Positions 1 to 982 of a DNA stretch of 46,069 nucleotides are shown here, piece after piece. The notes under the pieces were generated by a model. It searched no databases, was not told the DNA's origin, and saw only the letters and a list, made by a program, of their open reading frames with translations. Position 1 is the stretch's first letter; each line of letters opens with the position of its first letter. The position numbers and the translations under genes are program-made. This DNA comes from an archaeon BMS3Bbin15 (lineage in GTDB: Archaea; Hydrothermarchaeota; Hydrothermarchaeia; Hydrothermarchaeales; BMS3B), in the NCBI GenBank assembly GCA_002897955.1, contig BDTY01000059.1:1-46069 (forward strand). The letters are read 5' to 3'.

Positions 1-263
1 ACTCTTGATTTTCCTTGCTGCAAAAGTACTCTTGCCTTTCTCGGTGTTGTTGGCATTAACGGTTTTCCATGCATGTTTATGACAGGGACGCTTAACACCT
101 GTCCACTCTTGCCAGAGTGTTGGTCCTGAGCGGAGCTGTTATTGGCCAGTACTTTGTAAGGCACACTGAGAGTTTCCTCTCTGTTTAATGCCTCACTTAC
201 AGAGCAGGGGACTTGAGGAGCATCACCTGATGTGTTCTCGAACTCTACCAATAACTTCTGCAT
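1..263 (-). CDS. iscB: IscB-like RRXRR-domain nuclease, N-terminal part (runs off window)
   Basis: The frame is open from an ATG at 263 to the window edge. Its last visible residues, around GKPLMPTTPRKARVLLQQGK, are the signature N-terminus of IscB proteins (PLMP plus RRXRR region), the RNA-guided HNH/RuvC nucleases encoded by IS200/IS605-type elements and regarded as Cas9 relatives. The RuvC and HNH domains would lie beyond base 1. An AGGAGG stands 9 nt before the ATG at 263. However, the first 55 codons do not look like IscB protein and are full of perfect RNA hairpins, so translation may really begin at the GTG at 98, giving a start of MLSVPVIN. The family is clear from the PLMPTTPRKAR block; the start and the integrity of the gene are not known. 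Confidence 0.8.
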   Translation of the reverse strand, partial: MQKLLVEFENTSGDAPQVPCSVSEALNREETLSVPYKVLANNSSAQDQHSGKSGQVLSVPVINMHGKPLMPTTPRKARVLLQQGKSR

Positions 264-345
264 TCTTCAATGCCTCCTAATCAACCTGTTACCCCAGACT
301 CTCACGAAACAGGCCACCAATTTTAATGGGTGGTGATTGACGAAG
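99..345 (-). ncRNA. Candidate omega RNA (HEARO) of the IscB element
   Basis: IscB nucleases use a structured RNA encoded just upstream of, or overlapping, their ORF. Reading the minus strand from 345 downward there is a dense series of stems. They are CCACC/GGTGG near 334-315, CCTGTT/AACAGG around a 17-nt loop, GCATT-GAAG-AATGC spanning the ATG at 263, CATC-AGGT-GATG, GAGAG-GAAA-CTCTC (a GNRA-type tetraloop) and CACTCT-GGCA-AGAGTG at about 118-103. The last ends just before the likely IscB GTG at 98. The guide would lie 5' of the first stem, that is across the rpl15e stop codon. The structure is seen by eye; calling it HEARO/omega RNA is inference from position and from the IscB gene. Confidence 0.6.
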
Positions 346-347
346 CT

Positions 348-932
348 TTACTTGCCTCTTTTCTTGTTTGCTCTTATGCTTGGCCTTACTTTCTCTGCAC
401 CTTCGCCTTTATTTCTCAGGCCTCTGGAGGTTTTTCCTGCGCCGGTAAGCCCTCTGAAAACTCTACCCCTGTGTTTGCCTGAAGCAATCCACCCTAAGTC
501 ACCGTCTTTTTTTATGGATGGGTGACTTGGGTCAAGGAATATAACCTCGTAATATTCATATCTGCCATCTTTTCCTATCCAGTATGAGTTAAGAACCTCA
601 AGGTTGGGATATCTTCTCTGAGCTCTCTCCTCAGCCAGCCATTGTAGACTTTTCTGGGGTGTATATTTGACAACACCCATACGCTTTGGTCTTCTGCCTT
701 TGTTAAGTCTCTGTTTTTTCCTTCCACCTTTTCTGATTCTTGACCTCACGACAATGATTCCCTGCTTTGCTTTGTAGCCCAGAGCCCTTGCTCTGTCAAC
801 CCTGGTGGGGGTGTCGACTCTCACAACACTCGCACCAGCCCTCCACTCGGGTATTCTCCTTCTGAGCAGTTCATGAAGATAACCTTCTTTTGGTCTTTTC
901 CATGCCTGAGAAATATATTTATATATAGCCAT
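348..932 (-). CDS. rpl15e: Large ribosomal subunit protein L15e
   Basis: This is an archaeal/eukaryotic-type ribosomal protein of the 50S subunit that contacts 23S rRNA. The 194-residue product is the normal family length and very basic. It carries the family blocks [13 protein letters not shown] at the N-terminus, [15 protein letters not shown] near residue 50 and [15 protein letters not shown] at the C-terminus. The frame can be extended to a GTG at 941, but AGGTGA overlaps that codon and stands correctly spaced (5 nt) before the ATG at 932, so 932 is the start. A TATA-like box lies about 50 bp upstream. The IscB element begins directly after the stop codon. Confidence 0.97.
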
Positions 933-982
933 GTTGTTCACCTAGAAATCGTTAAAATGTATTCCTTGAGTTCTGGAGTTAT

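What the first reader, a model, noticed from the sequence alone, without database searches (positions are those of the whole stretch)
1..345. IscB gene with a folded leader: an archaeal OMEGA system at the window edge
The PLMPTTPRKAR block identifies IscB, and the bases upstream hold at least five perfect stems, including a GNRA-type tetraloop, packed into about 245 nt and ending at a GTG start at 98. IscB systems use such RNAs (omega RNA/HEARO). Archaeal examples are less studied than bacterial ones.
Basis: partly seen in the sequence, partly recalled or inferred. Interest (0 to 1): 0.75.

Follow-up and report, generated by a model that had tools for sequence, protein, structure and literature searches.

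The report
Archaeal IscB–guide-RNA element at start codon
The window edge holds a real IscB/omega-RNA mobile element in a hydrothermal-vent archaeon, one of about 30 omega-RNA copies in its genome; it is inserted exactly in front of the start codon of a housekeeping gene, and its far end appears to bring a replacement ribosome-binding site, which would make the insertion harmless.

Summary
The Rfam HEARO model hits window 341–119 (minus) with 99.6 bits (cut-off 83). The reading frame after it is the start of IscB, cut by the contig end. Fold energy alone is weak (z −1.4), but 42 sibling RNAs show covariation. The host is an archaeon of the genus of SZUA-158 (Hydrothermarchaeota), with 29 HEARO copies; the sister species has 31. 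Sibling IscBs carry RuvC and HNH with the catalytic residues.

New here: the sister species has the empty site (…rpl15e-TAA-AACTTT|ATGA…). The window element therefore sits precisely between rpl15e and the ATG of the next gene (PF01877), with no target duplication. The guide is the rpl15e end and the TAM (ATGA) is the next gene's start codon. Across both genomes 43 of 53 ATGA-class right ends sit on start codons of long frames (expected 16–26%). Nearly all carry a Shine-Dalgarno about 51 nt from the ATG, but only 8–13 nt if the terminal hairpin is skipped. ATAAR-class relatives in the host lack it. This looks like a "harmless landing" strategy: family known, strategy apparently a new variant. 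Key original papers were not held, so novelty is provisional.

The parts
342..358 (-). Predicted 17-nt guide of the omega RNA (GAGGCAAGTAAAGCTTC): last codons and stop of rpl15e plus 6 nt; host flank just outside the element
   Evidence: Sequence 5' of the HEARO match. The sister's empty site reads GAGGCAAGTAAAACTTT followed by ATGA. ~17-nt 5' guide of IscB: PMC9640706
119..341 (-). HEARO / omega RNA; base 341 is the element's left boundary
   Evidence: Rfam RF02033, 99.6 bits, positions 1-211 of 211; covariation in 42 copies; flank comparison with empty site
314..333 (-). Left-end hairpin CCACCCATTAAAATTGGTGG, the most covarying stem among copies
   Evidence: Alignment and pair counts, columns 11-33
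167..181 (-). GNRA-type hairpin GAGAG-GAAA-CTCTC within the RNA
3..263 (-). Open frame: 3' part of the omega RNA read in frame, then IscB N-terminus ...VINMHGKPLMPTTPRKARVLLQQGKSR, cut at the contig end; IscB proper from about 104
   Evidence: RRXRR PF14239 at 89-6
96..98 (-).
348..941 (-). rpl15e, archaeal ribosomal protein L15e, intact; upstream neighbour and source of the guide
   Evidence: PF00827 E=3e-81; C-terminus unchanged against relatives

Best explanation
This is the left half of an IscB-omega-RNA (OMEGA) element of the IS200/IS605-like ISC kind. It sits between rpl15e and the start codon of a PF01877 RNA-binding-protein gene, in sense with both. The omega RNA carries the end of rpl15e as its guide, and with IscB would cut the vacated site [rpl15e end]-ATGA on an empty sister allele, so that repair restores the element (cleavage inferred from the family). 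The TAM/target ATGA is the start codon of the next gene. The element's right end carries a Shine-Dalgarno followed by a terminal hairpin that leaves 8-13 nt to the ATG, so the displaced native ribosome-binding site is replaced and the insertion costs little. Shown here: family membership, exact insertion site, empty site in the sister species, start-codon enrichment, and the SD/hairpin geometry. Inferred: RNA-guided cleavage, hairpin bypass by the ribosome, and past mobilisation by a Y1 transposase acting in trans.
For: HEARO above cut-off; IscB domains in siblings and alignment to solved IscBs, 9k30 E=4e-51 and OgeuIscB 7xht 3e-43. Covariation. Empty site in sister G001, rpl15e 98% identical: TAA-AACTTT|ATGAAAATTC; contig C105 gives IscB C-terminus, right end, then ATGAGAATTC of the orthologous gene (PF01877 E=4e-26). 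Further empty sites: L21e|ATGA and several |ATAAR sites. Start-codon enrichment: 43/53 against 16-26% expected, p 3e-25 to 2e-16; G000 alone 18/22, p 2e-11 to 1e-7. Ten downstream frames are conserved genes starting at that ATG. SD to ATG: 51 nt linear, 8-13 nt skipping the hairpin, in 41 elements; the SD matches the host 16S 3' end GGATCACCTCCT; host-genome ATAAR-class ends have none. The same SD-hairpin-ATGA layout occurs in IscBs of Methanosarcinales and Methanophagales MAGs. At three shared sites the right end is 92-94% identical while the omega RNA is 83-86%.
Against: No cleavage, transcription or translation data exist. About 310 nt of this copy's IscB centre are unseen, and C59-C105 linkage rests on synteny, not on reads. 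The inferred C-terminal half carries a 111-nt in-frame repeat insertion just before RuvC-III, so this copy may be inactive. Guide and sister empty site differ at TAM-proximal positions 1 and 5, which would block cleavage if OgeuIscB rules hold (PMC9640706). No Y1 transposase was found in this genome, so it may be immobile today. Start-codon enrichment could reflect survival of harmless insertions rather than targeting.
Confidence: 0.8

Rival explanations
1. Relict: the element is dead in this genome (no transposase, IscB interrupted) and only its right end still matters, as the ribosome-binding site of the downstream gene.
For: No Y1 transposase in G000, 13 matches in sister G001. 111-nt repeat insertion in the IscB half on C105. 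Several copies lack IscB. At shared sites the omega RNA has diverged more than the right end.
Against: The interrupted frame stays open and HNH/RuvC-III motifs are intact. Several full-length IscBs remain in the genome. Compensatory changes keep the RNA fold. Several insertions are species-specific.
Confidence: 0.25
2. Domesticated RNA-guided regulator: IscB/omega RNA binds but does not cut, tuning the ribosomal/RNase P operon, as described for nuclease-dead TnpB regulators (recalled from memory).
For: Sits inside a housekeeping operon, co-directional; some sites are shared between species.
Against: Nuclease motifs retained. The guide's target plus TAM is destroyed by the insertion itself. The window site is empty in the sister species.
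Confidence: 0.05
3. Type II-D CRISPR-Cas or a stand-alone HNH gene rather than IscB-OMEGA.
For: CRISPR typing tools mistake archaeal IscB-HEARO for type II-D (PMC12988326).
Against: Full-length HEARO RNA just upstream, protein about 395-430 aa, best solved relatives are IscBs, transposon-like ends and empty sites.
Confidence: 0.02

Closest known systems
IscB-omega RNA (OMEGA) / HEARO RF02033 (OgeuIscB 7xht, TbaIscB 9k30)
   Same: 5' omega RNA with full HEARO match, RRXRR/PLMP N-terminus, split RuvC with HNH, 5' guide from the host flank, 3' TAM
   Different: High copy number in a ~1.7 Mb archaeal genome; ATGA-class elements sit on start codons and carry an SD before the terminal hairpin; several copies are omega RNA without IscB
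ISC / IS200-IS605-family elements (Kapitonov et al. 2016; archaeal members known)
   Same: Subterminal hairpins at both ends, insertion beside a short target motif, no target duplication
   Different: No Y1 transposase in this genome; the sister has a TnpA element whose end resembles the ATAAA-class end, suggesting mobilisation in trans
IStrons (IS element plus group I intron; PMC4227781)
   Same: A mobile element that makes its own insertion harmless
   Different: IStrons do it by RNA self-splicing; here it would be by landing before a start codon and supplying a ribosome-binding site
Nuclease-dead TnpB-like regulators (recalled, not tested)
   Same: RNA-guided transposon protein in a host operon
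   Different: Nuclease motifs intact here and no regulatory target found

Membership tests
IscB-omega RNA (OMEGA) | HEARO/omega RNA directly 5' of the gene | tested here: met
   RF02033 99.6 bits, full length; covariation in 42 copies
IscB-omega RNA (OMEGA) | PLMP/RRXRR N-terminal region | tested here: met
   PF14239 positions 1-28 in the window, full length in siblings
IscB-omega RNA (OMEGA) | RuvC and HNH nuclease with catalytic residues | tested here: met
   Met in siblings and in inferred other half C105; the window itself ends before these domains
IscB-omega RNA (OMEGA) | Guide from 5' flank and TAM on the 3' side, reconstituted at the empty site | tested here: met
   Sister empty sites join guide and ATGA or ATAAR; window guide has 2 mismatches to the sister allele
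IscB-omega RNA (OMEGA) | RNA-guided double-strand DNA cleavage | not testable with these tools
   needs biochemistry
IS200/IS605-like mobile element | Precise insertion without target duplication, hairpin ends | tested here: met
IS200/IS605-like mobile element | Y1 (HUH) transposase in the element or genome | tested here: not met
   0 hits in G000 at 98.6% completeness; 13 in sister G001. Present mobility in this genome is therefore not claimed
Type II-D CRISPR-Cas | CRISPR array and tracrRNA next to the nuclease | not tested
   Size and HEARO context argue against it

The most novel reading that the evidence does not exclude
A lineage of archaeal OMEGA elements is adapted to land immediately upstream of start codons and to re-supply translation initiation through a Shine-Dalgarno-hairpin bypass, so that many guide RNAs, several without a nuclease, can be carried in housekeeping operons without damage.
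Probability: 0.6. Interest if true: 0.7.

Novelty: new variant of a known kind. Interest (0 to 1): 0.55.

Why it matters
RNA-guided transposon nucleases are the ancestors of Cas9. How such elements reach high copy number in a small archaeal genome without wrecking genes is not obvious. An ATGA target that doubles as a start codon, plus a built-in ribosome-binding site, is a simple and testable answer. The pair of sister genomes with occupied and empty sites makes guide, TAM and insertion rules readable at base resolution for an archaeal IscB. Many of the insertions lie before the start codons of conserved host genes.

Tried and rejected
Fold energy alone was tried as evidence and rejected: z −1.4. 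GTG at 98 as the IscB start was set aside because siblings do not conserve it. The missing part of this IscB was looked for by contig overlap: only C83 shares the end (127 nt), so overlap gives no continuation; synteny with the sister was used instead. Whether the Y1 elements of the sister carry HEARO was tested: none found; one TnpA type only shares a similar hairpin end. The KaiC-gene site first looked like a shared insertion, but the middles align poorly (41%), so it is not counted as orthologous. The pattern-based sorting of right ends let three non-elements into class B (G000 C34:12349 and C94:2760, G001 C14:10648), which were left out of the comparison. An early count of 45/55 starts was corrected to 43/53. 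Weinberg 2009, Altae-Tran 2021, Kapitonov 2016 and Meers 2023 are not in the library, so whether start-codon placement was noticed before could not be settled; searches of the held papers found no mention.

Full report
What is there. The window is one whole contig (G000:C59) of an archaeal MAG of 1.74 Mb. On the minus strand its first bases hold, in order, rpl15e (941–348, PF00827), a full-length HEARO RNA (341–119, 99.6 bits) and the N-terminus of IscB, cut at base 1.

The RNA is real. Forty-two copies from two genomes align over the whole length, and 13 of 56 predicted pairs show compensatory change on both sides, strongest in the left-end stem. These copies are related, so the counts are not independent events, but the alternative stem sequences recur across loci.

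The host. The genome carries an archaeal 16S gene. Its only held genus partner, G001, has contigs of the same lengths as SZUA-158, which PMC6946796 places in Hydrothermarchaeota. HEARO occurs 29 times in G000 and 31 in G001, but not in the other eight family members searched. Related IscBs occur in Methanosarcinales, Methanophagales, Methanoperedens, Borrarchaea, Woesearchaeota and others, so archaeal IscB is not new; a recent survey also notes archaeal IscB-HEARO.

The missing half. Contigs C59 and C83 end in the same 127 bases, so overlap cannot extend the gene. In sister G001, rpl15e (98% identical) is followed by TAA-AACTTT-ATGAAAATTCTTTCCCTTGAAGCC, the start of a PF01877 gene. In G000 the orthologous gene start, ATGAGAATTCTCTCCCTTGAAGCC, lies on contig C105 directly after an IscB C-terminal half and a right end. 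C83 pairs with C21 by the same logic. The window element is therefore rpl15e-TAA-AGCTTC | omega RNA – IscB – right end | ATGA, inserted without target duplication. The C105 half contains HNH and RuvC-III and stays open, but carries a 111-nt repeat insertion just before RuvC-III.

IscB function. A complete sibling (C87) matches solved IscBs, and the motif positions (LGID, VEV, EIEHII, KSHVNDA) align with the catalytic residues named for OgeuIscB (residues from PMC9640706). RNA-guided cleavage is inferred from the family, not shown.

Guide and TAM. Comparing G000 insertions with G001 gives empty sites for ATGA-class insertions (window site, L21e) and for ATAAR-class insertions (C74, C87, C71+C111, C34, C94). 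For four ATAAR sites (C74, C87, C71, C34) the G000 guide matches the sister's empty allele exactly. For the window guide there are two differences, at positions 1 and 5 next to the TAM.

Start codons. Of 53 ATGA-class right ends in the two genomes, 43 have the ATGA as start of a frame of at least 80 codons. Among non-disrupting ATGA sites in 141 kb of these genomes 16% (strict) to 26% (generous) are starts, giving p from 3e-25 to 2e-16; without shared sites 39/49, p 2e-22 to 1e-14. Caveat: gene calls in the background are simple ORF calls. Ten of the downstream genes were checked and are conserved families (DNA ligase, L21e, KaiC, amino-acid-kinase family, SAM hydroxide adenosyltransferase, MobB, SNO, pyridine-nucleotide-disulphide oxidoreductase, TPP enzyme, PcrB).

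A built-in ribosome-binding site. Nearly all ATGA-class ends carry GAGGTGA, GGAGGT or GAGGTA just before the terminal hairpin; the true ATAAR-class ends of G000 have none, while the few TTGATGA-type ends of G001 have partial matches. The motif matches the host 16S 3' end, and the host uses such sites (33 of 79 ORFs against 10 of 79 random positions). In 41 elements the SD is 46–56 nt from the ATG in line, but 8–13 nt (median 9) when the hairpin is skipped. Three older insertions shared by both species keep the right end at 92–94% identity while the omega RNA is at 83–86%. The same layout is visible in IscB elements of UBA203, AUK006, CSMAG_2236 and a Methanophagales MAG. Because ATAAR-class ends have the hairpin but no SD, the SD is unlikely to be a transposase signal. 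The bypass itself is inference.

Mobility. G000 has no Y1 transposase; G001 has 13 matches of two kinds. One kind ends in a hairpin and ATT|ATAAA much like the ATAAR-class ends, without HEARO nearby, so it may have moved these elements in trans; this is a lead only. About eight G000 copies are omega RNA plus right end with no IscB, and could use IscB from other copies.

Verdict. Family membership is close to certain and by itself ordinary. The start-codon placement with a replacement ribosome-binding site is statistically strong and, as far as the held literature shows, undescribed; the main original papers could not be read.

Noticed in passing
L170 (G000:C105) 441-551: 111-nt insertion in frame within IscB, flanked by inverted TGTGTGAAAAC ends; the same repeat interrupts the 5' end of HEARO copies on C19 and C63 and occurs in G001.
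   Followed up: partly
window 3-263 (-) and sibling copies: The 3' half of the omega RNA is open in frame with IscB in many copies (MQKLLVEF...), so it could encode an N-terminal extension; other copies break the frame.
   Followed up: no
G000 copies C114 (two), C74:17303, C84:19535, C47, C75:14465, C89, C34:13477: Short elements with omega RNA and right end but no IscB, sharing one conserved spacer: a non-autonomous family with different guides.
   Followed up: partly
L279 (G001:C6:2766-3128) and L278: Y1 transposase element whose end (ATGGGTGGGATTCTTGGC...ATT|ATAAA) resembles the ATAAR-class IscB right end; none in G000.
   Followed up: partly
L016 (G000:C75:14465) and L251 (G001:C35): Different-looking elements sit before the same KaiC-family start codon in both species: repeated hits, or replacement at one site.
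   Followed up: no
L052, L054, L055: IscBs 65-66% identical to the archaeal one in MAGs labelled Elusimicrobia and Actinomycetes: recent transfer or mis-binned contigs.
   Followed up: no
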